Part shown: in pieces, positions 8,681 to 60,364 of the stretch
Layout of the letters: every line of letters begins with the position of its first letter
Numbering within the stretch: position 1 is the first letter of the stretch
Source: Symmetrospora coprosmae
Taxonomy: Eukaryota > Basidiomycota > Cystobasidiomycetes > Symmetrosporaceae
Length of the DNA stretch: 64,000 nucleotides
Assembly: GCA_008802785.1 (NCBI GenBank)
Contig: VUYT01000003.1
Span: 835,640 to 899,639, forward strand
Direction: 5' to 3'
The notes under the pieces: generated by a model
Database searches by the model: none
Told to the model about the DNA's origin: nothing
What the model saw: only the letters and a program-made list of their open reading frames with translations
Made by a program: the position numbers and the translations under genes

Positions 8681-11600
8681 TCACGATGCTTGAGTGTCCG
8701 TTGACGCCTTCCGCCTGCCCGTCGCCGGCGCCTTCACTCTCTGCAGAGCATTCTTAGGCATGGTGAGGAACTTGAGCCTGCACACGGGGGTATCAGCGAT
8801 TGAGCCATACACCACAAAAGGCAGACTGGGAGATGGTCAACGCACCACTTGCTCGTACTCGCACCCCGCGGCCTGCCGCCCTCGCTGCTATCCTTCGATT
8901 CTGATCGCGCAGAATCCGTGCGCATGGCAGCGGACCCACCGCCGCTCCCGCCGGCCGAGGTAGGGCTGAGGTTCCTGCCCCACGCGCCATTCGACCCATT
9001 CGTGCTCGCCGTCCCCGGTCTTCCATCGCGCTGCGACTCTGCCCTGTTGGAGCTCCGGCTCGAGCGAAAGCTGGCGTTCCCGCCTCGAACGGTGCCAGCA
9101 GTGAATGGCGCATCGCCGGCGCCTCCAATGGGCGACTTGCCGTTCGTATGCGCCTGCGCCCTCGGCCACGGCACGTCGCCTCTCGCTGCCGTTGCGCTGC
9201 GCGGCGAGGCTGGAGGCAGCATCTCAAGCTGCTGAGGCGGGATCTGCAAGGGCGCCAGAACCGACGGCGAGGCCATGCCGTTCGGAGTCGTAGGGGCTTC
9301 GGCCCCTTCTTCATCGCCCGCAAACAGGCTCTCTTCTGCATCTCCATCCTCTCCGCTGACGCTGTCGTCAATGCTGCTCTCCGACAGCGCCAGCATGTGC
9401 TTGGGAAAGACGGTCGGCGCCGTCATGCCCGTCTCCATCTGCGGCGGGTCGACCGTCCAGATGGTGTCAAAGTCCACGGCCGAAAAGAACGGGTGCTCCT
9501 TGATCTCGTCCACGCCCCGCTTGCTGCCTAGCCGCTCCAGCGGGTCCAGCACGAGCAGCTTCGACACCAGATCCCTCGCGTCGTCTGGGAACTCTGGCGG
9601 AAAGTCGTAGTCGAGGCGTGTAATCTTCTGAAAGATGAGATACTCGTTCGGCGCCCGGAACGGGGTGCGCCCGCAGATGAACTGGTAGAGGACGCAGCCG
9701 AACGCCCAGAAGTCTGCTGCGTGGGGCGGAGGGAGCGTCCGCGCAACCGCGGCCGGGTCCTTGCTGAGGTCTGGTAGCGGCTTTGCTGTCAATAGTTCCG
9801 GCGAGACGTATTGAGCGGTCCCGACAAAGGAGTTCGACCGTGACTGAAGGTGATCCTCTGACGACATTGACTGACATTAGCAATGTCGAAGCAGGGAGTG
9901 GGCGGGCAGGTCCTCACTCACCAGCCGACACGTTCTCGACTGATCCATTCGGGCTCAACAGCTTGGCCGTGCCGAAATCAGCCAGCTTGATGCGCATCTT
10001 TTCATCGAGAAGCATGCTGCGAACGGAGGAGCATATGCATTAGATGCTGTACGAGCACACGAGATGGGTTAATGATGGCTTGTCTCACTTCTCAGGCTTC
10101 AGGTCCCGGTGCACCACCCCTCGCTTGTGCATGTGCTCCACGGCAGAGATGACTTGTGCAGCGTAGAAGCGAGCGACATTGACCTCGAACGAGCCGTAGT
10201 CCTTGATGAATTTGAGGATCTCGCCGTTACTTGCCAGCTCAAGGACAAAGTAGAGGGAGCGCTCGTCGTGGAACGTCCAGTACAGGCGAATGATGCCCGG
10301 GTGCCGATCCAGTCGAGCGAGCGTCTCCTTCTCGACGTTGACGTACTTGACTTTGCGTTCCTGGAAGCAAGCGAAACATGACCGTCAGTTTGTGGCCGCT
10401 CTGTCAGACCGGTCCACATCGGGACTCACCTTGATGATGTGCTTCTTGTCGAGCACCTTCAGAGCATACTGGCGATGTGGCGGAAACTTGTCCGTCGCCA
10501 AAAAGACGGTGGAATAGCTACCTTCGCCCAGAATCTCGCCAAGGTCAAAGTCTGATGCCTTCTTGTGGAAGTTGTTGCCGATGCTCGCGCTGCTGTTCGT
10601 GCGCGAACCGAGGCCCGGCCGCACGCTGGACAGCGGGCGCAACATGCCATTGGGTGTCGCGGTCCCATGCGGACCCGCAGCGAGCATGAGCTCTGCCCCA
10701 GGTGTTGTAGGAGGTCGGAGCATGGCGTATGAGCTGCTCCCGTTCTGCTGTAGAAGCGGGAATCCTTGTGGCGCTTGCTGTTGAGCTGTTTCGGCGGGTC
10801 CCCCGTTGCTGGCAAATATGCTTCCTGCAACGGGAAGCGCGATGATTGCGGGACGTGGGGTGCGCCCACTTCCTATTGTGTTGGCGTGGAAGCTGCCATT
10901 GGCAGCTGCAGATGCAGCCGTTGCTTCAGCCGCGTAGAGAGCGGCTGCTGAGGGCCCTATCGTCGCATTGGAGCCGGATGCGCGGTGCCCGCTCAGGCCT
11001 ACATTCGAGGGCGCCGAGCGCAGGGATGCTTCATCGACAATGAGGGGCAGCAGCTTTGGCTCGATGGCCGCCACGGGGACGACGTGCACCCCCGGAGCGA
11101 CTGGCAGGGCGCCGCGAGGGACCGGGTTCGAAAAGCTGTTCCTGGCTGTCGTGTATCCGCGCGTGCCACTACCGCCAAAGCGGGGGGGCAGCAGAGTGGG
11201 AAAGTACGATGTCCGTCCTTCTCCCGATGTAGAACCCGCGCGCGAGTTGCCTCCCGCCGGCGTCCGAAAAGGCGTCATGCGGAACGGCGTGGCGTACACG
11301 GAGCTGCTCGACGATGCGCGCGAGAGGCCCGACACGCTCGAGTCGCTCGAGGTGCTGTCCCCTCGTTGCAGCGCGACGGTCACATTCTTGTTGAGTGGGC
11401 GGTTGTCCGAGTCTGGGTCAGGTGACGATGCAGCCGAGATGTCGGCCGCGTCTGCGTGGCCTTCCTCTGCCTGTGCGGGAAGCAATGCATGCTGCGCGCC
11501 AACGTCTTCTTCTGCGTTGTTGCCTGGGTGTGCCTGCTGGTGCTGCGATGACTGTTCGCGCGTAAGTCGCCGCGCATGCGGGTGCGCGACTGGCAGCGCC

Positions 11601-20951: not shown

Positions 20952-22395
20952 CTAGCGGAGAGGGCTGAAGGGAAGTGGGCTGAGGATCTGTGCGCTCATG
21001 TGGTCTGTGAGCTTGACGGTCTGTGCAGAGTGAAGCAGGAAGCAATAGAGACACATCAGCTTTGGAGCGAGCGAGCGAGTGCAAGAGAGGGCCGGACCTT
21101 TGCCACCGTGTTGCTCCAGGTGTCAATCTCCCACGCGCGCTGCCGCATCTGCTTTCGGGATTCCATGCTGTCGTAGTGCCACATGTGGATGACCTGGTGC
21201 AGCTCGCCGACCTGGGCGAAGAAGGCAGCGATTGGCTCGACGAACTGCTTGCGCGCCTCGAGGCCGACGCGCCTGTGTGAATGTGCAAGCATGTCAGCGA
21301 TGCGGAGCGCAGGGCGGCCTTGACGGGACGCACCACTCCTGCTCCCATTCGAGCAGTGATCCAGGTTTCTGTGAGGGCGAGCCGTTTGATCAGCTCGCGA
21401 AGAGCTCTCGAGGCGCGCGCATCCACTCACGAGCGAGTAAGTGCGCATCTCGTAGATGCCGCCGAGGACTTTCGGCGGGGAGGACGGCCAGAACGAGAAC
21501 TCCTGGATGAGCTGCGAGCTGCGGCTGACGAGTGTCGGCGCAAGACGAGCAGCAAAGTCTTGGTACTCCTGTATGGATAGGGAGGAGTAGTGTCAGAATG
21601 ACGAGCTGCGCGCTCGCTTGCGCCCGCAACGACCGACGCTCACCTTGCTCGCAGCCATCTTTGGCACGACCTCGTCGTAGCCGTGGAACCCGCTGTGCTC
21701 CCACTGCGAAGCATACGAGAGCAAGCGTCAGCGGATAGCCCTGCCTGCAAGGGTGGAGACGCCTTCGGGCGATCGCCTTACGACGTGGTCTGAAGGCGCA
21801 AAGGGCAACGAGAGGGCGTCAGCGGACGCTAGTATGCTAGTTTAGGCGCATGGATACGCACAGAAGGTGTCGAGCTCGCCGACGATGACCTCCCAGGATC
21901 CCGTGAGCTTGATGTCAACGTCTGGGTTCTTTGCGAGGCTGTCGTAGAACTGCGCGACGAGGCTCTTGTACTCGTCGACCCTGTCCGGCTTTACCCTGTG
22001 CTTGTACAGTTCGTGGATGTACTTTCCCCTCCCGAGCACCTTGGAGTATCCTCGGTTGCCGCCCTGGCTGCCTGCTGCCTGCGCGCCGCCTTCGCCTTCG
22101 CCGTCCACCGTGGGGGCCTCGGCCTTTGCCTTGTCGGAGCCATACAGCACGGACTTGGTGGAGGGCAGCAGCAGCAGCAGCAGCAGCGGCACGTCAGCTG
22201 GCAGAGAATATCTCCTTGCAGCGCTGCTGCCTGTCTGCTATGCCTCACCTTGAGCAGTCCGCCCTTCTTCTCGTCTGCGAACTGACGGCTCGACGTTGAC
22301 AGCCAGGCCCGCGAGGATGACGCTACAGGCGCGGATGTGCCGCAGCGAGCAGCTGCTCTGCCACTGATGAGAGACCGTCGGAGCGCAGTCTGCAT
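20952..22395 (-). CDS. NIPSNAP-family mitochondrial protein
   Basis: Homologue of the NIPSNAP family, small mitochondrial proteins with two ferredoxin-like (dimeric alpha-beta barrel) halves; in animals they mark damaged mitochondria, in fungi the role is unclear. The N-terminus MQTALRRSLISGRAAARCG is Arg-rich and fits mitochondrial import. Exon 1 is 22249-22395 and exon 2 is 21862-22153, containing LYGSDKAKAEA, RGKYIHELYKHRVKPD and LTGSWEVIVGELDTF. An 8-nt exon at 21782-21789 then joins to WEHSGFHGYDEVVPKM. Later exons carry LIQEFSFWPSSPPKVLGGIY, EMRTY and QVIHMWHYDSMESRKQMR, and the C-terminus ends ILSPLPFSPLR. Exon 2 is preceded by a CAG/CTG-type run inside the intron at about 22168-22190. 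The motif LIQEFSFW and the closing LSPLPFSP block are strongly diagnostic. Confidence 0.92.
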
Positions 22396-22622: not shown

Positions 22623-25600
22623 CTACATGCCCATCCTCAGCCGCTGCAACCGCTGCTCCTCGTTCATCTGCACCATCTGGTTTGTCCGCCTGTCATTGTC
22701 CATCTCTCGCAGAATCTGCCTCTTCTGCTCGGTCGCATTGAGCTTCTCTGTAGGCGGGACAACGTTGCGCAATAGTCAGCTCTGACGGCCTCATGACGCT
22801 CGACCAAGGGACTGCACTCACGAGCCTGCGAGAGACCGGGCATCTGCTCCGTCTTCTGCGCGATGCTCAACCTGATCCTGTTGGCCAGATCCCTAGTAGG
22901 GTCGGGACCAGCGAGAGACCTCGACAAGCTGCTCGTTGCCAGCTCCGGCTGTCTGGCCATCCTAGCGGCAAGAGCCAGGTTCGGCTGGCGCTGCAGGACA
23001 GGCGCGAAGCGGGATTGGAGACCGGGCGGGAGCTGCGTTCGGAGAGTAGGAAGGGCCACTCGCGGAGGTGGGAGAGCGCGCGTGCCGTTCATGAGCAGCG
23101 GTGCGCTGTATCGCCTGCCGAAGAAGGACGACAGACCGAGGCCTGACAGATGCGGCGCAAGCAGCGTCAGCGCATTTCCCGGTCGCGCTCGCATCATCTC
23201 GCAAGCTCACCCAGCATCCGTCGCTCCGCCTCCTGCATCTGGTAAAACTTGAGCCGCCTCTGCCTCTCATTGAGCTCCTGCCATCTAACGCGCGCCCTCC
23301 ACCTCCGCAGCTTGACCTCGTCACGCAGCCTCCGATCCGCTCGAAGCGCATTTTCGAAACTGACGAGATCCGCAAAGGCAATGGCGCTCTCCTGACCCTG
23401 TCGCAGCGCCTGAGTGAAGTAGTTCTTGCTTTGATATGGCTTGAACATACTCGCCAGAGTGCTCGAGACCGGGTACGACATGGGTCGAAGCGCGCGCGGG
23501 TCGTAAAGATCGATGAGGCCGAGTCGTGAGTCCCACTAAAGTGCGAGCAGCCTGTGTCAGTGTTGTTTCGCGCTCGATTGAATGCAGGCCCCGCACTCAC
23601 GTAGCCTCCCGTGAGACCGAGCGACGTCCTGTCGGTGTACGACATCTGCCCCCACCTCGTGCGCCGCTCGAGCTCGTCCAGCTGCTCAAACTCCAGCCTC
23701 CGCCTCCATCTCGCCAGTCGCTCGCTCTCCTGCAGGTTCCGGTCGTACTTGAGCGCGTTGCTCCACGCGAGCAGATCCGAGTATCGCGCGTAGCCGGAGT
23801 CCATGTACGAGCACGTGTTGAGGCCGCTGCTTCCGCTCATGTACGGCGAGTAGACGCTGCGGAGCGTCGAGGGAAGCTCGTACGGCAGCGACATGCCCTG
23901 GAAGTTGGCCGACGAGGCGGCGTACAGCGGACCCTGCCAGGAGCCAATGAGACCCAGACCGAGGCGCTGCGGCATAAGGAGCGATAGTAAAGTCAGCGAA
24001 TTCATCTTCGAACTGCCATTTATACCGGTACGCTCACCTCCCTCTCCGTCTCTGGCATCTGCTGCCACCGAAGCCTCCTGGCATCCGCGTCGAGCTGCTG
24101 CCACTCCATACGCTGCTGCCAGCGCGCCATCCTCTCAGCCTCTCCAAGCGCCTTGTCGTTCATCAGAGTCTGCTGATAGTATGCGAGGTCCGCAGCCTCC
24201 CTGAATCGCGAGTCGTCTGAGAAGTATGGCAGTCCGCCGAGCGAGCTGGCGCCCGAACCGTAGAAGTCGGAGTAGCGGCTGCGCAGGCTGCCAGTCAAGC
24301 CGTGCGGCATGCTGGAGTATGATTTCAGGTAGTAGTTGGGATTGCCGTACCCGAGCGAGTAATCACTGCCGTAATAGGATCCTGCGCAAGGGTGAGAGTG
24401 TCAGTCTGAGCACAGGAGCGCAATGCGCGGGCTGACTCACCAGGGTTGGAGTAGTAGCCGAAGGCAGAGTATGCAGGGTCGTAGCTTACGCCTCTGCCGT
24501 ACTGGCTGCCGTAGTAGCCCGTGTCCAGACCAAGCCGGCTTCGATAGCCGGGTGAGTAGGAGTTCCAGGTGGATGCTCGGGCAGCATCGTCGAGCGCATC
24601 AAAGGCGAGCCTGTCGCGCATGATGCTGTCTCGCTCGCTCTGCGCGATAGCATTGTTAGTGTAGAGGCGGTTCTCAAAGTTGGCGAGATCAGCGTATTGC
24701 AGGCCCTGCGGTGGTGTGGTGAATACGTCAGTCTACACCGAGAAGCGCATGCAGAGGCGCGATACTCACAGCCGAGCCGAGTCCGGAGCCAGCGCCAAGA
24801 CCATCGTACGCGCCATAGCCGTACGAGGTGTGCCCGAGCAGGCCGAGGTCTCGGTCGTAATGCGAGTCGCCATAGAGGCTGCTCGACAAGCCGCTGCCGA
24901 GCCCGCCGTAGCCACCGCCTACGAGAGAAGCATCGCCGTATCCGAGGCCCCGGTCCAGCGAGTGGCCCGCACCGTATCCGCCCAAGGTCGAGCTGCCATA
25001 TCCGCCGAGACCGCTGCTGCCTGCATACATGCCCGCTCCTGCTCCCAGAGCTGCTCCTCCTAGTCCGAGCGCGCTCGCTCCCAGCACGTCGGAACCATCC
25101 AGGCGTCCGAGATTGTCGAGGCCAGTGTCGTACGTTGACCAGCCAGAGTTGCCGAGCCCGGCGAAACCGGCATCGTAGCCTGCCGCACCGAGACCGAGAC
25201 CGGAGCTGCCCAAGCTGCTAGAGCCGAGAGTATCGAAGCCAGCGTTGTAGTCGGAGAAATGGGCGCTCTCGAGCGGGGACGCAGCAGCGGCCAGACCGCC
25301 GTAGCCCACCGTATCGAGCCCGCTCCCCATTGCGCCCACGCCTCCGAATGAGCCGTAGCCGTCCACCCCTGAGGAGTAGGCGCCGAGGCCGCTGTCGTAT
25401 GAGCGCGAGAGGCCGTCGAGGCCAGCGTCGAGACCGCTGTCGAGCGCACGAGACCCGCCAAGACCGCTCATATCGAAGCTCGAGGCGCCCAGCGAGTCCA
25501 GCCCGCCGCCCAATGCCTGCCCGTAGCCCGCATCGTACTGGCCGCCGCCTTCAACGCCCGAGAGGAACGGGTCTGACAGACTCGAGCTGCCGAGAGTGTC

Positions 25601-26017
25601 GAGCGCACTCCCTCCGCCGATGCCGCCGAGCCCGCTGGAAAGGTCGAAGTTGTCAAAGTCGCGAGCTTCGGGGATGTTGAACGCGCCAGGCAAGCTGCCA
25701 GCCCCTCCTCCGCCGCATTCGTACGGGTCGCTGAAGCCTCCTCCTCCGGCGCCGACGCCTCCGCCGTCCGCTCCGTAAGCGTCCAGTCCTGACGTGTTGA
25801 AGGACGATCCAGCGAGGCCGCCGCCGCCATAGGTGTCGTCCAGCCCGGCTCCGAGCGTGTCAAATCCGCTGTCGTACTGCTGGCCGCCGGACAGAGCGAG
25901 CCCGTCATCGCCCAGACCGTAGAGCTGGTTTTGCAGGCCAGACCCGATGCCCGCATCTCCGTCGTAGGACCGATAGCGCCCTCCGCCGAGGGTGTCGTCA
26001 CCGTCGTAGTAGGCCAT
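22623..26017 (-). CDS. Orphan 997-residue protein: Gly/Tyr/Ser-rich N-terminus plus four helical repeat modules
   Basis: I do not recognise any family. Seven exons on minus: 24770-26017, 24441-24705, 24038-24381, 23601-23966, 23211-23535, 22822-23142, 22623-22747. They total 2994 nt with every junction GT-AG and in frame. Residues 1-416 (exon 1) are almost entirely Gly, Ser, Leu, Tyr, Asp and Ala, with short recurring units such as FDTLG, LDTLGSSS and YDAG. It looks like a prion-like or phase-separating region. Residues about 418-850 hold four modules. Each starts with an A/S-DL-A/V motif, continues as a charged amphipathic helix with pattern ERxARWxxR, then LDxxxRxxxWxQMxxxER, and ends in LGL plus a Tyr/Gly/Ser-rich linker. 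A basic proline-rich region and a Gln/Arg-rich helix (QMNEEQRLQRLRMGM) close the protein. No signal peptide or membrane segment is seen. The ATG at 26017 is the first in frame. Confidence 0.85.
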
Positions 26018-26547
26018 CTTGTGCGCGCCTGACCGTCTGCCTACCGTCAAGAAGGCAGAGACAGGCACGACAAGAGTGTTTCGAGTTGGCGGAACGGCAA
26101 AAGCCTCGAGAGCTGTCGCGCATGTCTGTCCAGTCGCAAAGCGCGACGACGCGGAGGTGACGCCGGCGCTCGACCGACCGAGCGGAGCGGCGGGGATGCA
26201 TCAAGCTTGCGGCAGCTCTCGCGGCAGCGTCTCCAGCGTGGCTGTGGAGGACATGCGCGTCAGGCTTCAGATCTAGGTCGACAACACTGGATCGCACTCA
26301 CGTCCTGCCATTGTGTCTGCCTAGAGTATCAATGTGATGCAATGCAGAAAGGTCCTTCGCTGCTGATCCAGTTCGTCCACAAAGGGCGGAGGAGAGGGCA
26401 GGGCAAGCTCGAGTCCAGACAAGGCGTCCTCCCTCCGGAGCTCCACCTCATGCATACATAGACTATGCAGTGAACAGATCTCGACAGCAGCGTACTGCCA
26501 GTCGACGCGACCACCGTACCCCTTACGAGCAACCCTGCGCCTGCGCC
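26018..26547. other. Divergent promoter between the repeat protein and the sugar transporter
   Basis: 530 bp between two starts facing away from each other. It should carry both promoters and leaders. No ATG-initiated frame of note and no repeat was seen. Confidence 0.45.
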
Positions 26548-28254
26548 ATGTCCGCCTCGCCATCGCACTCACCAAGGCGGTCCGTCAGTCTCTCACGTGC
26601 ATCCGAGCCGACGCCATCTCCGCAAGTCCTGGCCTTTCGTTACGCGTGGATAGCTGCTCTGAGCTTCCAGTATGGCTACCACATCGCGTCGCTCAATGGT
26701 CTTCTCAACGTGCTCAGTCCCGACTTCCACCACATGACGGTGCGGCCGGGTCGCGCTCAGCCAGGGCGTTGCGTCGCCAAAGCTGACCAGGGAAACACGT
26801 CTACAGCGCTACCAGTTCGGCCTGCTCACATCTATCTACGCGCCTGGGGGTCTCCTCGGAAGTCTCGTAGCTGGAACGCTCGCAGACCAGCTGGGTCGGA
26901 AGCGGGCGTCGCTGACCGCATCAGCCGCGGTCGGCGTCGGGTCCCTCATGATGGCCTTTGCGGCACCGCATCTCTGGATCCTCCTGCTCGGCAGGTGAGC
27001 TGGTACACCGCTCAGTTTATACTGTCTGCTTCTCACAAGCTGTCCTGCAGGTTCGCGATTGGCACTGGGTGCGGCATTGTTGTGGTTGTCGTGCCAAACT
27101 ACCTCTCCGAGATCGCTCCGGCAGACAAGCGGGGCAGCGTGGGCGTCCTCAACCAGCTCGGAATCGTCACGGGCATCTTCGTCGGCCAGGCCGTCTCCAT
27201 TGCACTTGCCTCTGCGTCACTATGGAGATTCGTACCCATCGTCAGCGCATGCGTCGCAGCAGCTCAAGGTATCCTGAGCCCGAAGATGGTGGAGAGCCCG
27301 GTCTGGCTAGCTGGGCAAGCAGGCGGGGATGCAGCTCAGACTGACGAGAGTGAGTGTAAGCATCTTCCTTCTCAATCCGGCTGAACGGAAGCAGCTGACA
27401 TGTCTGTGGCGACAGCATCTCGCCTGCTGGCGGATGGCACGCTCCGTGGAGACGAAGAGAGTATCGCCCCGGCTCAATCAACGAGCAAGGCGCCCCCGCG
27501 AACGATCCGAGGCGTCCTCACCTCGCCCCTGACAAGGAAAGGGCTGCGTATCGTGCTCATCACGCAGATCTTCCAGCAGATCTCTGGTGGGTGCGCGTAG
27601 CCCGGGCAGTACCGCGATCTCGCTAACGCCAAACACGATGACCAGGCATCAACGCTGTGCTATACTACAGCTCGGACATCATGAAGCACGTCTTCCCGAC
27701 CAAAGCGGGCTACATCGCCCTCTTGATCACTGGCGTCAACTTCCTGATGGTGAGCATCCCTCATGAGCGTCTGTAGGCATGGCTAACCCAAGCTCGTATG
27801 CAGACCTTCCCTCCACTCTACCTCATTGACGTGAGTATCATTCGACACAAGCGCGAGACCGGCCCTAGCTGACTTTGAACTGGCTTGGCAGCGCGTGGGC
27901 CGCCGCCCTCTGCTCCTGGCGTCCATAGGCCTCATGAGCTTGTTCTCGCTAGGCCTCTCATTCAGCATCACCTCGCATGCCATCCTCTCGAGCTTCTTCA
28001 TCATGGCCTTTGTCGCAGCCTTCAGCATCGGCAACGGACCCATCCCCTTCATCCTTATTCCAGAGGTCGTTCCGCCCGCCAGCGCACCTTCAGTCGGGTC
28101 GATAGGGCTGTCTGTGAACTGGATCGCCAACTTCATCGTTGGGGCAGCCTTCATACCGCTTGCTACGGCACTGGGGACTCAAGGCGTCATGCTCATGTTT
28201 GCGGCTATTTCGGCAGTAGGCTGCCTGGCTGTCGGGCGCGTGTACCAGCCATGA
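26548..28254 (+). CDS. MFS sugar transporter (sugar-porter family)
   Basis: Twelve-helix transporter of the major facilitator superfamily, sugar-porter branch. Starts at the ATG of MSASPSHSPRRS; the open frame further upstream lacks an ATG. At least six short introns interrupt it. Family signatures present are FQYGYHIASLNG in helix 1, DQLGRKRASL between helices 2 and 3, and KMVESPVWLAG after helix 6. QQISGINAVLYYSS in helix 7, RVGRRPLLLAS between helices 8 and 9, and GNGPIPFILIPEV in helix 10 complete the set. The GxGPIPF form and the unusual VESPVW block resemble GLUT/Vps73-like fungal transporters more than high-affinity hexose transporters, so an internal-membrane location is possible. Substrate and direction cannot be told. 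The gene ends 95 bp from the convergent UVDE gene. Confidence 0.9.
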
Positions 28255-31742: not shown

Positions 31743-34651
31743 ATGAACGACACGGGGATGGAGCTGGATGGCCTGACGCCCGTCATTGCAGCCGGTCCTC
31801 GAGGTGTTCAAGGCGGTCTGCTCGAGCGACTGGAGCGAGAGGCATTGGCAGAGGCTGCTCAAGCTACCGCTGCCGCTGCAGCTGCTGCCAGTGCCGCATC
31901 CGCTGGGCCGTCGCAGCCTGGAGCGTACGTCCCGGGCGCCGCTGCTAAAGTCAGAAAGCAGCAGCAGCAGCAGCAGGCCGGGCCGTCCTCCCCCTCCCCT
32001 TCCACGACCACTATCGGCAGCGCAGCACCTGCAGCAGCGACGACGACGACCTCAGCACAGCCGAATGGCGCGACCCAGGGTGAGTGTGTTGCTCTGCTTG
32101 CGATTGAGGAGGAGCCGAAGCCAGCCTGAACTGAACCGCGTCGCACCCGGCTGCGCTTTCGCCACAATCACCATATGCACCTCTTTGCCATATCTACGTG
32201 TATTCCCTCCACCACTCATCACCCTGCACGTCTAACGTACAATGTGACAGCCGCCGCTGGACCCGCCGAACCCAAGATTAAGATCAAGCCCGAGCAGCCG
32301 ACCATCCGACTCCAATTCCACTTCCGCCCTTACTCGCCAGAAGTCGTGCCCACAGCCAAGCAGGTCCCCATCTTCAACGTCCACGAGCTGTCTGAGAAAG
32401 CTGGCCTGCTCGTACACGTGTCCGAGGAAGAGGACGAGAGCGCTTCGTCGCAGGGCGGGTCGGATGACGACGATGACGGGGAAGCAGAGGGCGAAGAGAC
32501 GGGTGCGGATGTGAGTTATTAGCTGCTGTCCCTCCTTGTGCTGCATCTCTGCTGAATGTTTCTCTCGCACAGACCACCGTCGAAGCGACGCACGAGAGTG
32601 CAGCCATGAAAGCCGCTCTAGCCATCGCCCGCGCAAAAGGCAACAAGGTCATCCAGAAGAAGCGCGTCCGCGACCGCGACGAAGGATACGACGTGAATGA
32701 CGCGTTTGTCGACGACAGCGAGCTCGCCATCAACGAGCCAAAGTACTGCGCAAAGGCTGTCAAGGAGGGCTACTGCGTCGTGCAGGGCCTTGTCGACGTC
32801 GTAGCCGCGTCTGGCAGCGGAGCCAAGAAGGGCAGGCAGGCGGGGAGCCTCAACAAGCCCAAAGTGTCTGTAATGCAGCCGGATGGGAGCACAAAGATGG
32901 TCTCGGAGGCGGTCGCTGCGAGGGAGGAGAAGAAGAGCGCAAAGGCGAAGATGTCGCCTGCGGCTCCAGCTGTAGGCACGAGCGCCAGTGCCAGGGAGGA
33001 GGGAGACGCCGCCACTGCCAGCAGCAGCACCGCCAAGAAGCAGAAGATGAACGACGGCCATGCTTCGGAATCGCCCGGCCCGTCAGTCCTCCTGCAGCGC
33101 GAGCCTCGCCCGTACGCTTCCGCCCCTCAGTCGTCCACGGCATCCGCGCAGAGGGCTCCAGACTCGCCTGCCATCACCTCTCGACCTCCCGCATCGCACG
33201 ACGGCACTCCAGGTACGCGTACCTCGCCCATTGCCCTCGGCGACAGCGATGATGAGGGCGAGAATGCCAAAGGAAAAGGAAAGGCTAGAAGCAGCGACAT
33301 CCCCTCTTCGACCGCTCACGGGATGAAAACCGACTCGATGGACTATTCCTTCTCGAACTCGCCCGCACCGTCGTCAACAGCTGCCCCAGCTTCAACGAAC
33401 GGTGCTGGCCCGCCGCACGAAGCGTCGCCCATTCCGCAGGCCTCGAACGTATTTTCGTTCAATGCGAGCCCGGAGAAAGGAGGGAAGCGGGTCTACGACA
33501 CGCAGCCTGTCAGTAAGGAGCTGGCAGCTACGCTCAGAGACCTCGAGATCCAGGTCAAGAACAGTAGGTTATCTGGATGTCTGAGCAGACTCGTGGGGCT
33601 CACACAGCGACTGACCACTTATCCCGCGACGCAGCCTCCTTCCTACCCAACAAGAACAAGTTCCCGCCCTCACTCAAGCCGCCCCTCGTCCGAGCAGCCA
33701 TGCTCGCCATGGACAAGGGCGAGTACAACGACAATTTCTTCAACTTCCTTCCCGGCATCTTCCCGTACAACCGCTTCACGATGGAAAAGCTCGTCAAGCG
33801 CGAAGTGTGCGGTCCGCGCGTCGATAAGCTCGAGGCCGACATTGCGGCTACGGCGACTGCACTCAAGGCGCTCGTCGACCAGCAGATGCCCGCCATGATC
33901 CAGGCGTACGAGGCTAACGTCATGGCGTGGGAGGCGGAGGTGGCTGAGATCCAGAAGGGCAAAGGCACCTCTGCCGCGCCTGGGCACGAGAGCGCGTCCA
34001 TGCAGCCGAATGAGAGCAGACAGAGCCTGACCCCTGTCGGATCCGATGGTGACGCGAGCATGAGCGCACCTCCGCCGGCCTCTACAGCTGAAGGAGATGC
34101 ACTGCGTGAGTTGCGGACGAACAAAGGCCTCGAGTGCGCATCAGAGCTGATGCTCATTGCCTTATCATGCCACATCGACAGCTCCCAAACCCCTAAAGAA
34201 GTTCAAATTCACCGAGCCGATGCGCATGTACCTGTACAGCATCATGACGTCGAGCGGACTCATCAGCGAAGCCAAAATAGCCAAGGCGTGAGTCCTTGTG
34301 CGTCGCAGTAGACGACTCGAGGCCCCGCTGACAATGTGATGCACGCACAGTGAGATTGAGAAGGCTGATCCGCCGAGTCTCAAGTCGGGCGTCACGGCCA
34401 GATATGCGGAAGTGAGTGAGACGGCCAGACCTGACAGTTATCCCGCGCTGCACTGACCGCCATCGTACTTGTGCTCGCTCTAGCTCGTCAAGCTCTGGCC
34501 TGCCGACTGGATGACCAGCAATCAGCTGTCGCGAGAGCGTGAGTGTGACTGCCACCAACGAGTAGCCTGGCCTCCGAGCTGATGAAGCGATATCTCAGTC
34601 ACGGCTGCCAAGAAGAAGCTCGAGAAGACCATTGCGTCCGCCAAGCAGTGA
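31743..34651 (+). CDS. HIR histone-chaperone complex subunit, Hpc2/ubinuclein type
   Basis: Subunit of the HIR/HUCA complex that deposits H3.3-type histones outside S phase. The first ~115 residues are Ala/Gln-rich and disordered, with a run of six Gln. The Hpc2-related domain is in the third exon: RDEGYDVNDAFVDDSELAIN, followed by KYCAKAVKEGYCVVQG. It matches the family pattern GYDxxDxFIDDSE. Before it lies an acidic stretch of Asp, Glu and Ser. After ~250 disordered residues comes the ubinuclein middle region: KFPPSLKPPLVRAAMLAMD, then FFNFLPGIFPYNRFTMEKLV. The last exons are very short: MRMYLYSIMTSSGLISEAKI, SEIEKADPPSLKSGV, LVKLWPADWM and LTAAKKKLEKTIASAKQ. The stop is at 34649-34651. The start has a good context (CCACCATGA). 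Exact borders of the small 3' exons are my reading. Confidence 0.88.
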
Positions 34652-35016: not shown

Positions 35017-37612
35017 TTACTGCCCGAGCGGCGCTGCTCCTCCAATGACTCTCCCTCTGACGAAGACGGACGCAATCTGCAGAGTGCCGGGACTTTTATC
35101 AGTTCGGGCGCTGAGATGGCCAGTCTCGACGCAGGTTCCGACAACACTCACATTCCTGTCATCGCCTGCGAAGAGGAACTTCTCAAAGATGGCCTCGAGC
35201 GGGTCCTGCGGCTCGACGAAGAGAGCCGGGTTTGGCTGATCCTCAAACAGGTCGCCCCGGAAATCGAGCTCTTTCTGGCCGGTACGGACAAGCAGCGCAT
35301 CAAACTCCTTGCCGACCTTGAAGTTCCCGACAACGTCTTGCAGCTCGCACACCTCTGCTCCTCCCAGCGTCGCGAGGAAGAAGAGCGTCTCGAGGGGCAG
35401 GTGCTTGCCGGCGAACTTGTCCGGGGCGGACAAGGCGCGCGCAGGAGCGTCGATGGTCCGTTCGGCTTCCGCGTCGGCTTCGACGGGAGGCAATGCGCCC
35501 CCGTTGGACTGCTTCCTTGGCGTGAGCGAGCGCCCGCGGCTCTTGTCGGCTTCGATCTTTGCGTGCTCCTGAAAGCCAAACACTTTGGACACGACGCTCG
35601 CTTCCCGCAAAGCGCTCAGAATGCCGAGGCTGAGCGTGAAGGAGACTTCAGCATCTTGGCCTGCTGACAATTCGCCTGCCGGCACTCACCCGAATCCGCC
35701 AGAGACATCCGTCCCAAGGCCGACCTTGATGCCTCTGTCTAGCAGCTCGGCCACGGGCGAACAGCCACTTCGCAAGTTGAGGTTGCTTGTCGGGCAGTGC
35801 GAGATGCCTGACCGCTGTCTCTTGATGAGCTGCATCTCGTCCTCTTCGAGATGAACACAGTGCGCAAGAATGGTCTTCTCTGTGAGCAGGCCAAAGTGGT
35901 CGTAGACTGGGCGAGGAGAATGCGTCATCAGCAGGCCGGTCACGAGCACTATCAGCCAAGTGACGGGCCCACCCTGAGTGTAAGAATCGGTAAAGGGGAA
36001 GAGCTGCTTTGTGAACTCGATTTCTGCCGGGTTCTCGGCCAGATGCGTCTGAATGTGCAGCGACGGGTCCTTTGACACCATTGCCTGCAAGCTGGCCATG
36101 AGAGCGTCCGAGCAGGAGATGGCGAATCGTGGCGTAAGGATGGGCTGGACGAGCGCGGTCGAGTAGTAGGCTCGCTGCGTGACGGAGAGGGCCACGCTTG
36201 CGGCGCCGGAGGAGCCAGACGTCGATGAGCGGTGCCGACCATTGCTTCCGGACTTTCTCCGCCTGTCGTGCGAGCCTGAGCCTGAGCCCGACGAGGCCGT
36301 TCTGCTCCTTGAGCTGGAGCCGACCCTGGGCGAGATAGGGTCGTCCGAGGTCGACGCAGAGAAGCGCGGCGAGCAGCACTCCTTCCTAACATAGGCAATG
36401 AACTCCTTGGTGTCCTCGATGCTCTTGCTCGCCGTCTTTTCGACATAGTCGGGCGCGCTGTTCCGGTCCATGTTGCACTTGCCCACAAAGGCTCGCTGGC
36501 CTTTCCGGTGGACGATGTCGGCCAGCTGCTTGGTCGCATCGAGGTGCAGCGTCGCGTACCTAAGGGATACGAGTCAGACTGTGGACCTGAATCACGCTGC
36601 GACGCGTTGCACTCACCAGCAGCAGGTAGTCGTGCCTGTGTTGCGGAACGGTGTCAGCTGGCTCGTCCTTGGCTGTCCGCGCGACCGTGCTCACCTGCAG
36701 CGATGTTGCGAGATACGACAGACTCATATGTCCTCTGCGCATAGATTGGGTCGCTGAACTGTGTCGAGTGTCGTGCCTGAGCTTCCGTGCAGTGAGTGAT
36801 GTGCAAGATGCGCGCTCACCTTCGCTTCCGTAGGGAAGGTAAGCTGGATACGGCGTCGAAGGGTCAGTCTAGGAGCACAGTTGAGCTATAGGAGCCTGCT
36901 CACATTGCTCAGCCAGTCAAGCAGTTGGTACTGGGAGATTGTACTGATTCAGCGGGGGCTTGTCTTCGACACGTGCCTGCTTGTATGCAGGAGCGCACTC
37001 ACCTGTTGCCCTCTGCCCAGGTTCCTGTGACACGGGGAGGTCAGAGAGAGCAAAAGTCAGTTGTCCTCGGCTGGCTGCCTCTTCCTTCATCCCGCTCACG
37101 GATATTGCGGGGCGTGCTGCTCGGGAAAGATAGACAGATCAGCATGGCCTTATCGCGGCGCTTCCGGGCGCGCACGAGAGCCCGAGTGCACACGCACAGT
37201 ATGTGTGTCGATGAGTCTTTGCGAACAAGATAGATCCCATCAGCTCTGTGTGCGTGTTCAGGAACTAGGAGAGCTCCCTGTACCCACCCGGGGATGATAA
37301 ACTCGCCACGCTTGAGCGCAGTCACCTCGACTTGCTCCCATCCATTCTGCTGCTGCTCGAGCAGGCCAGCAATATCCTCGCTGCGGACATCGCGCTGGAT
37401 AAAGACTATCACACCGCTCTCGTCCACTGCGAGCAGCGTGTCGACCAGGTACTCGAGCTTGCGATTCGATAACGCATGAACAAAGGAGCCGTGGAAGACG
37501 CGCCGCTGTCCGGGCTAAAGGATGAGGGCGGGGATCAGCGGTCAGCGGATGATGTCTGCATCTCCTCTGCATCTCGCATACGCTCGCCTACCGAAGTGGG
37601 AGCAGTGACCAT
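35017..37612 (-). CDS. Guanine deaminase
   Basis: Zinc amidohydrolase that converts guanine to xanthine and ammonia in purine salvage and nitrogen use. About ten exons, several under 60 nt. The N-terminus is MVTAPTS|PGQRRVFHGSFVHA. The first metal ligands lie across an intron (LIDTHT|HAPQYP), as in the family's DTHTHAPQ. Further blocks are NLGRGQQYQLLDWL, ATLHLDATKQLADI, RAFVGKCNMDRNSAPDYVE and THLAENPAEIEF. HCVHLEEDEMQLI, SHCPTSNLNLRSG and GTDVSGGF follow, then ILSALREASVVSKVFGFQ and the end VFVRGRVIGG. A Ser/Arg-rich insert of ~60 residues sits between FIAYVRKE and TQRAYYSTA, where most relatives continue directly. The intron after GTDVSGGF is very short (29 to 44 nt depending on acceptor). 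Family assignment is secure. Confidence 0.94.
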
Positions 37613-44711: not shown

Positions 44712-45958
44712 TTACAAAATGCCACCGATCTTGACGGGCCCCTTGTGCGCTGGGAACCCGCCTGCGAACTCGTCCGGGAGATCCACTGCGACCTGCGCAG
44801 TCTTGCTCACGTACTCCCTCTTCGGCTTGAGCTCGCCGCTCCTGTATGCGTGCTGGCGCTTCTCGAGGTCGTGCGCCCACATGGCCGCGCCTATCCGGTT
44901 GCTGACGGAGAAGAGGAGGCCAACGAGCGGGACACGCTCGAACAGGGCGGCTGCGAAGCCAAAGGAGCGGTACTCGACCAGCCGCTCGACGATGAACATC
45001 TCCTCTTCGTAGGGTGTGAGGCGCTTGATGGCAAAGTATGGCTTGTGCAGTATGCGGGCAAGCGTCCTGGGATCCGGGAAGGGACTTCAGAGCAGAAACG
45101 GACCGGTGAGGAAGTGGCACTCACACGCTCGCTAATGAAGCGGAAACGATGAGGCCCAGGAACGGGATGAAGTTCAGGGGCTGGAGAACGACTGGAAGGG
45201 GCAAGCACGTCAACTGGGTCGGAGCTGCCTTGCCAAGGTTGGACTCACCTTTAAGCAGGATGATCCGCAGCCAAGGGTTCCCTGCCTTCATAAGAAAGCT
45301 CTTCCTCTCCAGACTCCTCTGTGCCCTCTCCACTGGTGGCTCTTTCCACTCCTCTACGTACGGCATCCAGAAACTGGCCTCTTTGCCTCGAGAGGCGACT
45401 GTCGCGTCGTATGCGTGCGCGCGGGCTGCCTTTAGCTCCTTCTTGATGAACCATTCGAGGACGAACGAGGCTTGCTGCAGGACGAGGAGGTACGTGGCAT
45501 ACGAGTGTATGCTAGAGGCGGCCGGTCAGCCTGTTGCCGCTGGAAGCATCGGGACAGACCCCAGACTCGCGCACTTGATGCCGAGCCAGCTGCTCTTTTC
45601 CTCGTACCGTCCGAGCAGGGCCGTCTTCATGAAGCTGCGGACGTAGTAGCGCGTGAAAGGCAACGAGACGACGGCCCACTACGAGAGGTCGGTTGAGGGA
45701 GGTCAGTCTGGAGCCTCTCCTTACATCAGCAGGGGATGCCATGACGTACGACGAGGGCGGCCAGAGCTCCCTTCTGGGCCGCTTTACGCGTTCGCTGCCT
45801 GCAGAGGGTGTTGACAAGGCTCTCAATGGTCGCCTCTTGCTAACGGTGCGCTGCTGCCGGCCGCACCATATTGGCCTGTTTATGCTGGCATCTGTCAAGA
45901 AGCGGTACGCTCCGACGAGGATGTAGAGCGGCGTGAACCGCAGGAACTCGGCTGGCAT
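44712..45958 (-). CDS. Polytopic membrane protein, Lds/Rrt8 (EI24-like) type
   Basis: About six exons. The N-terminus is MPAEFLRFTPLYILVGAYRF. It continues WAVVSLPFTRYYVRSFMKTA, LLGRYEEKSSWLGI and IHSYATYLLVLQQASFVLEW. Then come WMPYVEEWKEPP, PLNFIPFLGLIVSASLAS, FAIKRLTPYEEEMFIVERLV, EYRSFGFAAALFERVPLVGL and GAAMWAHDLEKRQHAY. The pattern of several hydrophobic segments plus the closing EEEMFIVERLVEYRSFG...WAHDLEK block reminds me of fungal Lds1/Lds2/Rrt8 proteins, which in budding yeast sit on lipid droplets and spore wall membranes. That link is from memory and moderate. The stop lies 23 bp from the convergent CCDC25 gene, so the two 3' UTRs must overlap. Confidence 0.75.
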
Positions 45959-46218
45959 ATCGCAGACGCGCAGAGAGTGCGCTACTTCGAGGGTGTAGTT
46001 TACTGTTGTGCTTGGTGTGCGATTGCGTAGGCGAGAAGACGTCGGACGCGTTCAATCCGTTGCCCACAGCCTGCTCTATCGGCGCCACCGAGCCCGTCGA
46101 CGTCGACGTCGATGATGCGTCTTTCCGTCCCACTCTCCCTCTGCGTCTCTCCAACCCAACAGCGATTGTTCATTCATCTATACACGGCAGGAAGCATCAC
46201 ATACATCGCACACACATC

Positions 46219-47873
46219 ATGGCCGACGCATCATCCAGCAGCAGCCCGTCCTCGAACGAGATTGAGATTGTCATCCGCGCCCCCTCCGACACCAAGTTGA
46301 CCGTCTCTATCGACACGTCAAAGACCGTGGCCGAGCTCAAGGAGATCATTGCAGCGAAATGCGACATTGAGAAGGACAGGCAGAGGCTCATCTACTCGGG
46401 CAAAGTGCTCAAGGACGAGGAGAAGGTCGAGGTGTACAAGATCAAGTGGGTGGGCTGCATGCGCTGCGTGCGCTGCGTCATCCGCATCAGGAGTGCCGAA
46501 GCGAGAGTCGGGCGTGCATGCAGCACAGGCAGCAGCAGGAATGGCCAATGCATACATGCATGGACGGTCAAGCTGACGGGTGCTTCGTGCTTGGGCTCCA
46601 CCTTCCTGCGCAGACCCGGAAACACCGTCCACCTCGTCAAGGGCGCTTCAAAGGCGCCCGCTCCGCCCTCGGCCGCCCAGGTGCCCCAGAACATCCAGAC
46701 CGGACAGCAGATAGCCGGCAATCCTCTAGCTCCTCTGATGAATGGTGCGCTTGCCTCGTCATCCGCGTGTCCCGCTTCCTTGCCGCACCCGATCGACGCG
46801 TACCCGCCCTTCCACCCGTCAACAGCCACCAACCAGATTGGCAACTTCAACCCGTTTGCGCAGATGGGCATGAACACCAATGATCCCGTGGGTTCTGCTG
46901 AACCCTCTGCTTATACAGGCTCCTGACTGACTCGTGCCCATGCGTCGCGCACAGAACATGATGTCGAACTTCATGGGCACGCAGGAAGGGCAGGACCAGA
47001 TGCGGGCCGCCCTGTCCAACCCCGAAGTCATTGACCAGGTCGGTGCAAATTCTCCTATGCGCGTTCCCCACCTTGTGAGCACCCCAGGCTGACAGTCTCC
47101 CCTTCTCTGGCTGCGCGTTAGATCATCCAATCCTCGCCCGAGCTTCGACAGATGGGCCCCTACGCGCGCCAGATCATGCAGAGCGAGCAGTTCCGCAACA
47201 TGATCACGAACCCTCAGGCGATGCAGCAGGCGATGCAGCAGGCAGAGCAGCTCCGCCAGATGGGCGGGATGGGCGGATTGGGTGGCATGGGCGGACTCGG
47301 AGGGCTCGGCGCCCTCGGTGGAATGGGAGGCTTTGGAGGCGGAGCTGCCGGCGCTACGGATCCCTGGGGAGCACCGCTAGGCGGAGGAGGTGCAGCGGGA
47401 GGAGCAGGCGCACAGCAGCAGCAGAACCGCGGACCGACAAACCTCTTCAACCCGCAACCTCAGCAGGCGGCCGGCAGTGCCGGAGCAACGGGAGCAGCAG
47501 GAGCCGGAGCTGGCCAGATGCCCGACTTTGGTGCGTTGCAGCAGCTGCTCGGCGGCATGGGCGGAGGTGGTTTTGGAGGATTCGGCGGGATGGGAGGACC
47601 AGGAGGACCGGGCTCGCCGCCCGCCCAGGCAGCCGCACCGCAGGACAGTCGACCACCCGAGGAGCGCTATGCGAGCCAGTTGGAGCAGGTGAGTCCCACG
47701 TTCTGCGGATCACAAACCTCGCGCGCTTTCTTCTAACAGAACTGTATCCGGTCCACCTGCAGCTGGGAGAGATGGGGTTCATCAATCCGCAAGCCAACAT
47801 CAGGGCGCTCCAGGCGTGCGGAGGGAACGTGCAGGCGGCCATCGAGTTCATCCTGAACAGCCAGAGTTGGTAG
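46219..47873 (+). CDS. DSK2: Ubiquilin, proteasome shuttle factor Dsk2
   Basis: Shuttle that binds ubiquitinated proteins and carries them to the proteasome. The ubiquitin-like domain, residues about 14-90, includes IEIVIRAPSDTKLTVSID, LIYSGKVLKDEEKVEVYKIK and PGNTVHLVKG and is split by an intron at about 46450-46613. The middle has an STI1-type region (MSNFMGTQEGQDQMRAALSN and IIQSSPELRQMGPYARQIMQ). A Gly/Met/Gln-rich low-complexity stretch follows. The C-terminal UBA domain (YASQLEQ|LGEMGFINPQANIRALQA, then GGNVQAAIEFIL) is also split by an intron. The low-complexity stretch at 47262-47640 is dominated by GGMG/GGLG repeats. Start ATG at 46219 has purine context. All three diagnostic domains are present in order. 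Confidence 0.96.
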
Positions 47874-48853: not shown

Positions 48854-50501
<1,648 letters not shown>

Positions 50502-57660: not shown

Positions 57661-59586
57661 TCAGAACTGAGAGACTAGCCCGCCATACGTCGTGAGACCC
57701 TGCTGCTGCTGTTGGTGCGCCGCCATCATCATCGTCTGCCACGCTGGGATCCCACCAGGCGTGCTCATGCCCGTCGGCTGGGGGAGGTGCATCTGCTGCT
57801 GCTGTGTGAAGTTGAACCCGCCCATGCCGTTCTGCGAGCCCGTGCCGGTGGCTGTGGGGCTAGGCAAGCCTGGCGAGCCGACCATGGGTTGCGTACCCGG
57901 GAAGCCACCAAAGCCCATCGAGCCCATCTGACCGTTCGCGCTGCCGCTGCCGGAAGTGAAGCTCTGCTGCTGCGGCATTGTCGGACTGCACGTGCCATTG
58001 CTCGTCCCTGCGCCAGACTGCGCAGGGAATATGCCGCCCATCCCAGCTGCGGCCGCTGCTGCTGCCATGCCCATTGACAAGCGCTGCTGGTACGCAATGA
58101 AGGCCTGCAGCTCACTCTGCGCCTTCTGCAGTTCGCGTGGTCCGAATTGCGCGGCAAGGTACGCAGCATCGGCAGAAGTGTCGAATGCAGCTAGGGCAGG
58201 GTTGCTAGGCCCCGCAGCGGCGTTCGCCGAGGTGCTAGACTGACTCGCGTTCGTCGCAGGGGTGGAGTCTCTGCGCGCTGCGCTGTCGAATGTCGAGGGC
58301 AGGGGCACGGGCGAGTATGTATTGCCAGGCGTAGGGACAGAGTGCGATGAAGCGGGCGAAGTGGCCGTTTTGTTTCCACCAACATCCGAAGCCGCTTTGT
58401 CGCTAACGAGCGATGCGACGGTCCCCGCAGGCGACGGGTTGCAGAAGGACGAGTTGGGCGACGCCGTGTGCTGGCCGTCGTGCACAGCTCCCGGAATGGG
58501 CATCGCGCCGTTGATGGTGTCGTAGGAAAGGGTAGCGTCACCAAAACGGTGGCTCCCGCTGCCCTGACTGGCATCAGAGAGCGCAGAGGGCGACGGTCCG
58601 TTCTCCGTCTTGATGCTAAACTGCTGCTGCTGATGTTCATGGGCGGCCATCGGGTTGAAGATGGCCGGGAAGCCAGGGAAGATGGGCATGCCAATATTGG
58701 GCAGCGAAGCGGAGCGCTCCTGACCCTGCTGGCCATGGTGTGCGGCGGCCTGGGCGCCGTTATTGGCGGCTGTCATGTGCGCCATGGCAGCTGCGGCTGC
58801 AGCGGGATGCATCATGGGAAAGCCATGCGGGTGATGACCCATCCCAGCCATGGCAGCTGCATGTGCCTGCATTTGCGCCTGAGCCTGAGCCTGAGCGTGT
58901 GCCTGAGCCTGTGCCTGCGCGTGCGCCTGTGCCTGCGCCTGAGCAGTAGCCATTGGGTTGCTCTGATAGGGCGCGGAGGGAGTGGTGACAGCAGGGGCAG
59001 CTCCGTTGCCGGTCGCCGGGCCGCCGCTGGCCCATCTCTCCTTCAGTGCTGCAATCTCGGCCTTCAGCGCCTGATTCTCCTTTGCCAGCTTGCGCTCGCG
59101 CCCTTGCAGATCGTTGATGAGGGCGATGCTCTTATTGACAATGGCAGCCTTGGAAGCGCGCTTGACGTGATTCTGCAGACGAGGGCAAGAGCGTCCTGTC
59201 AGACTGTGCAAGGTGTTTGAGCAGGAGAACAGATCGCCAAAGCTCACCATTCCAGGGAGCATGTCGGCAAGAACGAGGAAGCGGCCATTGAGGGATTCTC
59301 GGCGAGCGCGCTCAACCGCATTGTGCGTGGCCTTCTTCTCGGCGGTCGATGTCTGCTTCTTTCCCTTGCGAGCGGGCTTGTCGCTCGTGCCATCGTCGCC
59401 AAGCGAAGAGGTGGACATCTCGAGACCGTCCCTGTTCTCGTCAAAGTCGTCAAACGAGATATCGTCGTCCTCATTGCCGAAGTTGTCAAAGCCAGAGAGG
59501 GTGTGGAAGATGTCGTCGTCAACGCCGGGGATGGACGAGACGGACGAAATGGTTCGCTGATGCGAAGGCATGGTGGGGACCGCCAT
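57661..59586 (-). CDS. bHLH transcription factor
   Basis: DNA-binding regulator. N-terminal ~75 residues are acidic (FDNFGNEDDDISFDDFDENR). The basic region and helix 1 read HNAVERARRESLNGRFLVLA, with the H-E-R contact residues for E-box DNA. Helix 2 is HVKRASKAAIVNKSIALIND, continuing into a leucine-zipper-like heptad (LAKENQALKAEIAALKERW). A 75-nt stretch in the loop (59173-59247) has GT-AG ends and no stop; I take it as an intron. The remaining ~430 residues are Gln/Ala/Met/His/Gly-rich and disordered, including a Gln-Ala alternating tract. The start MAVPTMPSHQRT at 59586 has an in-frame ATG. Target genes cannot be deduced. A very long upstream region suggests complex regulation. Confidence 0.9.
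   Translation of the reverse strand: MAVPTMPSHQRTISSVSSIPGVDDDIFHTLSGFDNFGNEDDDISFDDFDENRDGLEMSTSSLGDDGTSDKPARKGKKQTSTAEKKATHNAVERARRESLNGRFLVLADMLPGMVSFGDLFSCSNTLHSLTGRSCPRLQNHVKRASKAAIVNKSIALINDLQGRERKLAKENQALKAEIAALKERWASGGPATGNGAAPAVTTPSAPYQSNPMATAQAQAQAHAQAQAQAHAQAQAQAQMQAHAAAMAGMGHHPHGFPMMHPAAAAAAMAHMTAANNGAQAAAHHGQQGQERSASLPNIGMPIFPGFPAIFNPMAAHEHQQQQFSIKTENGPSPSALSDASQGSGSHRFGDATLSYDTINGAMPIPGAVHDGQHTASPNSSFCNPSPAGTVASLVSDKAASDVGGNKTATSPASSHSVPTPGNTYSPVPLPSTFDSAARRDSTPATNASQSSTSANAAAGPSNPALAAFDTSADAAYLAAQFGPRELQKAQSELQAFIAYQQRLSMGMAAAAAAAGMGGIFPAQSGAGTSNGTCSPTMPQQQSFTSGSGSANGQMGSMGFGGFPGTQPMVGSPGLPSPTATGTGSQNGMGGFNFTQQQQMHLPQPTGMSTPGGIPAWQTMMMAAHQQQQQGLTTYGGLVSQF
58860..58950 (-). repeat. 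Imperfect GCCTGA/GCCTGT hexamer repeat coding a Gln-Ala tract
   Basis: About fifteen imperfect copies of a hexamer inside the bHLH gene, encoding alternating Gln and Ala with a few His and Met. Likely length-variable. Confidence 0.8.
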
Positions 59587-60364
59587 GATGTGACGAAGTA
59601 GAGGAGGAGGAGGTGAGGGGTGTCTGTGTGTGTCTTCTTCGTAGTGTCTGTTGACTGAGTCTCGTTGCTTGCTTTTTAATACTCTGGCAGGTCTCCTATT
59701 GCTACTCGTCGTGGAGTGGCCGGGTCGAGGTCGAAGTCGAGATATGCGAGCGCGTGCGATGTACTCTCTGCGCTCTTGGGTGCGTCGCTACGTGATACGA
59801 GCTTGTGCCTGTATCGGGGCATAGCTGGTCAGACTGGCTGTTCTGTGGAAGCCGCTCGCCGGCATCCGGGGCGAGAAGGGGGAGCAGGCTCACGAATGAG
59901 AGTATGCTTCTTGCGATGATGCAATCGTTGTGCAGCACCTGCTCTGTGCGATTGTTTCTCAGGGGGGCGCGATAAGGCTTTCTTTTTCGATGATAGCCCT
60001 TTCGTTTGGTGCGGCGGGGGTTTCGCGGGGCGGCGTCGCCCTTTCGGTTAAAGTCGACGGGGGTCAGGTGAGGAGGTGAGCGTTTTGGATGCTTGAAGCG
60101 AGATAGTCGTGGTAGGGAGGGGACTATGCACGACTACGGCTGAACAGACGATGCCTGCGCACTCTCTGGGTGTATTGCTGTATGCAGATCGGTGCTGCTG
60201 CTGGGATCGCTGTGGTCGCTTGATGGGTCGCTGTTGGGGTCGCTGGTCGCTGGGGGGTATCGGCGGTGGGAGGGGGATGCACGAAGCTAGGAACGCGAGC
60301 CTGTGTGCGAGATGGTGCGCAGCCCAATCTCGTGTCAGTCATCTCCTCTGTCTGCATGTCTGCA

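What the first reader, a model, noticed from the sequence alone, without database searches (positions are those of the whole stretch)
22623..26017. Orphan 997-residue protein with prion-like N-terminus and four helical repeat modules
Seen: seven in-frame exons. A 416-residue Gly/Ser/Tyr/Leu/Asp-rich N-terminus carries recurring FDTLG/LDTLG units. Four copies follow of a module with motif A/S-DL, then ERxARWxxR, LDxxxRxxxWxQMxxxER and LGL, separated by Tyr/Gly/Ser-rich linkers. Copies lie at about 24530-24700, 24040-24200, 23610-23770 and 23211-23390. Exon ends fall just after the helical part in three of the four modules, which points to exon-linked duplication. Inference: a multivalent scaffold or condensate-forming protein. 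I know no family with this pattern.
Basis: partly seen in the sequence, partly recalled or inferred. Interest (0 to 1): 0.75.

Follow-up and report, generated by a model that had tools for sequence, protein, structure and literature searches.

The report
Conserved fungal protein, four helical modules
A fungal gene encodes a long protein with a floppy, glycine-rich acidic front part and four related helical units at the back; relatives in other sequenced samples keep the same layout, so it is a real conserved protein of unknown job, probably an internal scaffold, and not a one-off oddity.

Summary
Seven exons (six introns of 59-74 bases, all GTGAG...YAG with a CTGAC box) join into one 997-residue frame. 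Four related modules of about 62 residues are beyond chance (leave-one-out, no shuffle reaches any of the four). The protein is not an orphan: 23 unnamed homologous fragments were found. Relatives without the introns read through five of the six joins with matching residues; the sixth, in a variable linker, rests on frame continuity. Modules 1, 2 and 4 group by position across relatives, so the layout predates their split. A search of the genome found no other module. No Pfam family at E<=1, no Foldseek match at E<=0.001. The module is predicted as a four-helix unit. Two inferences fail: the N-terminus is not Q/N-prion-like (Q+N 3.1%), and introns sit at different positions and phases relative to the modules, against exon-linked duplication. 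New: the best-kept stretch is the end of module 4 with an FFGRRY box behind it. A multivalent intracellular scaffold is the most likely function, but only inferred.

The parts
24770..26017 (-). Exon 1: 416-residue Gly/Ser/Leu/Asp/Ala/Tyr-rich acidic N-terminus (net charge -37) with degenerate Y-D-x-G-[FL]-D-x-L-G units
25028..25090 (-). Gly/Ala-rich hydrophobic segment, residues 310-330 (Kyte-Doolittle 1.40 over 19 residues; 1.66 in P0001)
24441..24705 (-). Exon 2: module 1 (residues 417-476, most diverged) and first part of the Tyr-rich linker
24038..24381 (-). Exon 3: rest of the Tyr-rich linker and helical part of module 2 (residues 561-619)
23838..23870 (-). Linker helix PSTLRSVYSPY before module 3 (residues 652-662); a similar L-x-S-x-[YF] element lies before modules 2 and 4
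23601..23966 (-). Exon 4: LGL end of module 2, linker, module 3 (residues 676-738)
23211..23535 (-). Exon 5: linker and module 4 (residues 789-849), net positive
23060..23142 (-). LGLGLSSFFGRRYSAPLLMNGTRALPPPR box (residues 849-877; the first codon lies at the end of exon 5), 24-28 of 29 identical in six homologous fragments
22822..23142 (-). Exon 6: box and basic tail
22623..22747 (-). Exon 7: C-terminal end; join to exon 6 matched by P0020-P0022

Best explanation
A conserved fungal protein, single-copy as far as searched, that most likely works inside the cell as a multivalent scaffold. Shown: an acidic low-complexity N-terminus with repeated Y-D-x-G-[FL]-D-x-L-G units; four old, diverged helical modules of about 62 residues; a predicted four-helix fold for modules 3 and 4; a similar L-x-S-x-[YF] element before modules 2-4, predicted helical before 3 and 4; a strongly conserved FFGRRY box and a basic tail. 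Inferred: the acidic N-terminus self-associates and may pair with the basic module 4 and tail, while modules 2-4 bind repeated copies of one partner through the conserved Asp/Arg residues; the FFGRRY box binds a separate fixed partner. Intracellular location is inferred from the start MAYYDGDDTLGGG, which does not look like a secretion signal (read by eye; no predictor run).
For: Gene model and introns; modules beyond chance; 23 homologous fragments, 52-98% identical over the matched part; module groups in the tree 100/100 (M1), 99/100 (M4) and 87/100 (M2, below the program's mark), module 3 rows unresolved; one Asp and three Arg invariant in 26 of 26 module rows; charge split -37 (N-terminus), +6 (module 4), +13 (tail); module 3 pLDDT 86-92 from residue 61 of the exon on; end of module 4 plus box 90% identical in the best 29-residue window; no second copy found in the 20.05-Mb genome.
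Against: No binding partner, location, expression or phenotype is known. The two-module model (P0010, 8 sequences) has mean pLDDT 67.7 and its five models range from 52.0 to 67.7, so the arrangement of modules is not settled. The same parts would also suit an RNA-binding or a membrane-bound structural protein. Only one relative (P0001) covers the N-terminus, and there one of the looser unit patterns (Y[DN].G) is reached by 71 of 2000 shuffles.
Confidence: 0.38

Rival explanations
1. RNA- or other polyanion-binding protein: the Arg-rich module 4 and basic tail bind nucleic acid and the Gly/Tyr-rich N-terminus drives ribonucleoprotein granules, somewhat as in FET-type proteins.
For: Module 4 net +6 and tail +13; conserved Arg in modules; 9 [GS]Y[GS] triplets in the N-terminus and 20% Tyr in the first linker.
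Against: Modules 1-3 are near neutral (-1, -1, +2); no Pfam family of any kind at E<=1; the N-terminus is strongly acidic.
Confidence: 0.2
2. Membrane- or cortex-associated structural protein: the Gly/Ala-rich hydrophobic stretch (residues 310-330) inserts into or lies on a membrane and the modules cross-link proteins beneath it.
For: The stretch is kept in P0001 and reaches Kyte-Doolittle 1.40 and 1.66 over 19 residues.
Against: 1.40 is below the usual 1.6 mark (recalled); only two sequences compared; no signal peptide seen by eye.
Confidence: 0.17
3. Septal-pore-associated disordered protein, a counterpart in role of the ascomycete SPA/SPP proteins.
For: Lineage-restricted proteins are known at septal pores (PMC10023807, passages seen; Lai et al. 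2012 on disordered proteins is in its reference list and was not read).
Against: No sequence link was sought; whether this fungus forms septate hyphae is unknown here.
Confidence: 0.08
4. Gene-model or assembly artefact, several genes or introns wrongly joined.
For: No RNA reads were available.
Against: Relatives without introns match on both sides of five of six joins; the remaining join (exon 2/3) lies in a variable linker, but P0001, P0005 and P0011 are single frames across it.
Confidence: 0.02

Closest known systems
Homologous fragments P0001-P0023 (unnamed; sources coded lgn, ena, jgi; P0010, P0011 and P0013 carry 'hypothetical protein')
   Same: Same modules in the same order, same linkers, same box and C-terminus where covered
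   Different: Each is a fragment; organisms not named; several come from close relatives of this genome; some lack introns or seem to carry them elsewhere
FET-type (FUS/EWS/TAF15) low-complexity proteins (recalled)
   Same: Gly/Ser/Tyr-rich N-terminus followed by folded parts
   Different: 9 [GS]Y[GS] triplets in 416 residues, 1.4% Gln, strongly acidic; no RRM found
Tandem protein A B-domain repeats (PDB 4npf, 5h7a, 5h7b)
   Different: Foldseek E 8.9 (4npf) and 6.8 (5h7b), Z far below the level that means kinship; 10-13% identity in the VIA alignments
Ascomycete septal-pore SPA/SPP proteins (PMC10023807, passages only)
   Same: Lineage-restricted; some disordered
   Different: No sequence comparison made; role here unknown

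Membership tests
Any Pfam-A family | Match above the family's cut-off | tested here: not met
   No family at E<=1 for the whole protein; among 15 module-bearing rows three families, one row each, best E 0.097
Yeast-type prion-like domain | Gln/Asn-rich composition | tested here: not met
   Q+N 3.1% of the 416 residues
FET-type low-complexity domain | Dense [GS]Y[GS] repeats | tested here: inconclusive
   9 triplets in 416 residues; no threshold or control was run
Phase-separating condensate scaffold | Forms condensates in cells or in vitro | not testable with these tools
   Composition and repeats only
Protein made by exon duplication | Introns at equivalent module positions and equal phase | tested here: not met
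   Offsets -4, +4, -1.7 residues from the LGL end and phases 0, 0, 1
Protein A-like three-helix bundle | Shared fold | tested here: inconclusive
Septal-pore-associated protein | Located at the septal pore | not testable with these tools
   No localisation data; sequence comparison with SPA/SPP proteins not made

The most novel reading that the evidence does not exclude
The module is a new domain family, perhaps a new fold, and the protein is the core scaffold of a lineage-specific fungal assembly whose four-module array and FFGRRY box have been fixed since before these species split.
Probability: 0.2. Interest if true: 0.65.

Novelty: new variant of a known kind. Interest (0 to 1): 0.4.

Why it matters
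It points to a domain family with no match in Pfam or NCBIfam here, found in one conserved gene with a stable four-module layout in the relatives seen. Strong conservation of module 4 and of the FFGRRY box means that it has a maintained job, so a knock-out and a tagged copy in one laboratory yeast could reveal a lineage-specific structure. Uncharacterised lineage-restricted fungal proteins are common (general knowledge), so the surprise is moderate.

Tried and rejected
Fifth module in the tail: the window's tail scores above most shuffles (4 of 1945 scored shuffles reach it; 5 of 986 with the first profile), but relatives P0020 and P0022 do not support it (55 of 1868 and 36 of 1944 reach theirs, with other stretches matched). 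Left open, not claimed.

Paralogues: none seen in the genome by the module half (six matches, all inside this gene) or by module 3 (four matches, the four modules). The tool says that only the best candidates are scored.

Homologue searches: each scored only the roughly 8000 candidates sharing most words, so more relatives may exist.

Organism: not identified. The rRNA family search did not complete and a ribosomal primer pattern found nothing. That this is a fungus, probably a basidiomycete, is inferred from the 20.05-Mb genome, GC near 61%, short CTGAC-bearing introns and a Dsc3_N hit together with recalled knowledge.

Papers: five searches (20, 15, 0, 3 and 0 papers listed) showed no paper on this protein in the listings; the library holds only part of the literature. 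Only passages of PMC10023807 were read.

Wording mended after recount: 'best-kept stretch' was first claimed for the box alone; a sliding-window check puts the best 29-residue window at residues 841-869 (end of module 4 plus first part of the box).

Full report
Observation. The seven-exon model is right. Exons at 26017-24770, 24705-24441, 24381-24038, 23966-23601, 23535-23211, 23142-22822 and 22747-22623 on the - strand give 2994 nt and 997 residues plus stop. All six introns start GTGAG, end CAG or TAG, contain CTGAC and measure 59 to 74 nt. The start codon lies in the context CACAAGATGGCC.

Confirmation of the joins without RNA. Three homology searches gave 1, 7 and 23 proteins; the last list contains the earlier ones. 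All are unnamed fragments (P0010, P0011 and P0013 are labelled 'hypothetical protein'); several look like open frames cut short by introns, and P0006, P0007, P0015, P0016 and P0019 are close to this genome (77-98% identity by the table). Around each join I compared 24 residues, ungapped, with all 23 relatives. Matches on both sides were found at join 1 (P0001), join 3 (P0001, P0003, P0013), join 4 (P0002, P0003, P0008, P0009, P0010), join 5 (P0004, P0012, P0020-P0022) and join 6 (P0020-P0022). Four further rows at join 3 (P0004, P0020-P0022) are the similar end of module 4 and do not count as support there. Join 2 gave no ungapped match; it lies in a variable Tyr-rich linker, and P0001, P0005 and P0011 are each one open frame from module 1 into module 2.

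Modules. The four modules are about 62 columns long and share 16 to 28 identities of 60-62 pairwise; each is found by a profile of the other three at 34.7-74.0 bits, while the best shuffles reached 8.2-17.8. Across 26 module rows (25 different) from the window and its relatives (34 profile matches; the 8 shorter ones were dropped), the Asp of the DL motif and three Arg are invariant in 26 of 26. In the tree, module 1 (4 rows, 100/100), module 4 (6 rows, 99/100) and module 2 (6 rows, 87/100, not starred by the program) group by position and not by species; the module 3 rows are not gathered under one fork. The duplications therefore most likely came before these species split. The whole genome, searched with module 3, showed only these four modules.

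Introns and duplication. Introns 3, 4 and 5 lie at -4, +4 and -1.7 residues from the LGL end of modules 2, 3 and 4, in phases 0, 0 and 1. In P0001 an apparent in-frame insertion, read as an unspliced intron, splits module 2, and P0003 and P0013 start with unrelated letters just before the same point. P0003, P0008 and P0009 all end inside module 4 at the same residue, which suggests another intron there. This argues against exon-linked duplication. For the other side: read-through in P0005, P0011 and P0015 (intron 3), P0017 (intron 4) and P0006 and P0007 (intron 5) suggests that the window's own intron positions are shared by several relatives (judged by eye).

N-terminus. Residues 1-416 carry net charge -37, Gln+Asn 3.1%, and six [FLY]D[TSN][LV]G units (0 of 2000 shuffles). 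A looser reading is Y-D-x-G-[FL]-D-x-L-G. In P0001, the only relative covering this part, G[FL]D.[LVI]G occurs three times (1 of 2000 shuffles reaches that), while Y[DN].G occurs three times (71 of 2000 reach that). A Gly/Ala-rich hydrophobic stretch is kept in both. 'Prion-like' in the Q/N sense is not met.

C-terminus. With the five close fragments and the near-duplicate P0021 left out, the best 29-residue window from residue 417 on, among windows covered by about three or more relatives, is 841-869 (90% identical), then 794-822 inside module 4 (86%); the box itself has 112 of 129 (87%). It is followed by a basic tail (net +13).

Surroundings. Of 20 open frames of the window scanned, 10 matched a Pfam family at E<=0.001, one of them below its curated cut-off. 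The nearest are NIPSNAP, downstream on the same strand, and a sugar transporter upstream on the + strand. They give no hint of function.

Reading. The most likely function is an intracellular multivalent scaffold; RNA-binding and membrane-bound structural roles are live rivals. Architecture, conservation and the lack of a second copy are shown within the limits above; partner binding, self-association and location are inferred.

Noticed in passing
22165-22190: Run of CTG/GCT triplets in or beside an apparent intron of the neighbouring NIPSNAP-like gene.
   Followed up: no
21059-21592: NIPSNAP domain (Pfam E 1.7e-14), gene directly downstream on the same strand.
   Followed up: partly
26338-28251: Sugar transporter (Sugar_tr) split over several exons on the + strand.
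   Followed up: no
32477-33895: HUN domain (HPC2/ubinuclein), a histone-chaperone subunit candidate.
   Followed up: no
35689-36573: Amidohydrolase family domain.
   Followed up: no
49545-50498: TIP49 (RuvB-like) ATPase.
   Followed up: no
8737-9876: C-terminal part of a PDK1-like kinase domain (best PDB match E 7.7e-35).
   Followed up: partly
57664-59787: Helix-loop-helix transcription factor candidate.
   Followed up: no
45937-46923: Ubiquitin-like domain with a Dsc3_N hit, a DSC E3 ligase candidate.
   Followed up: no
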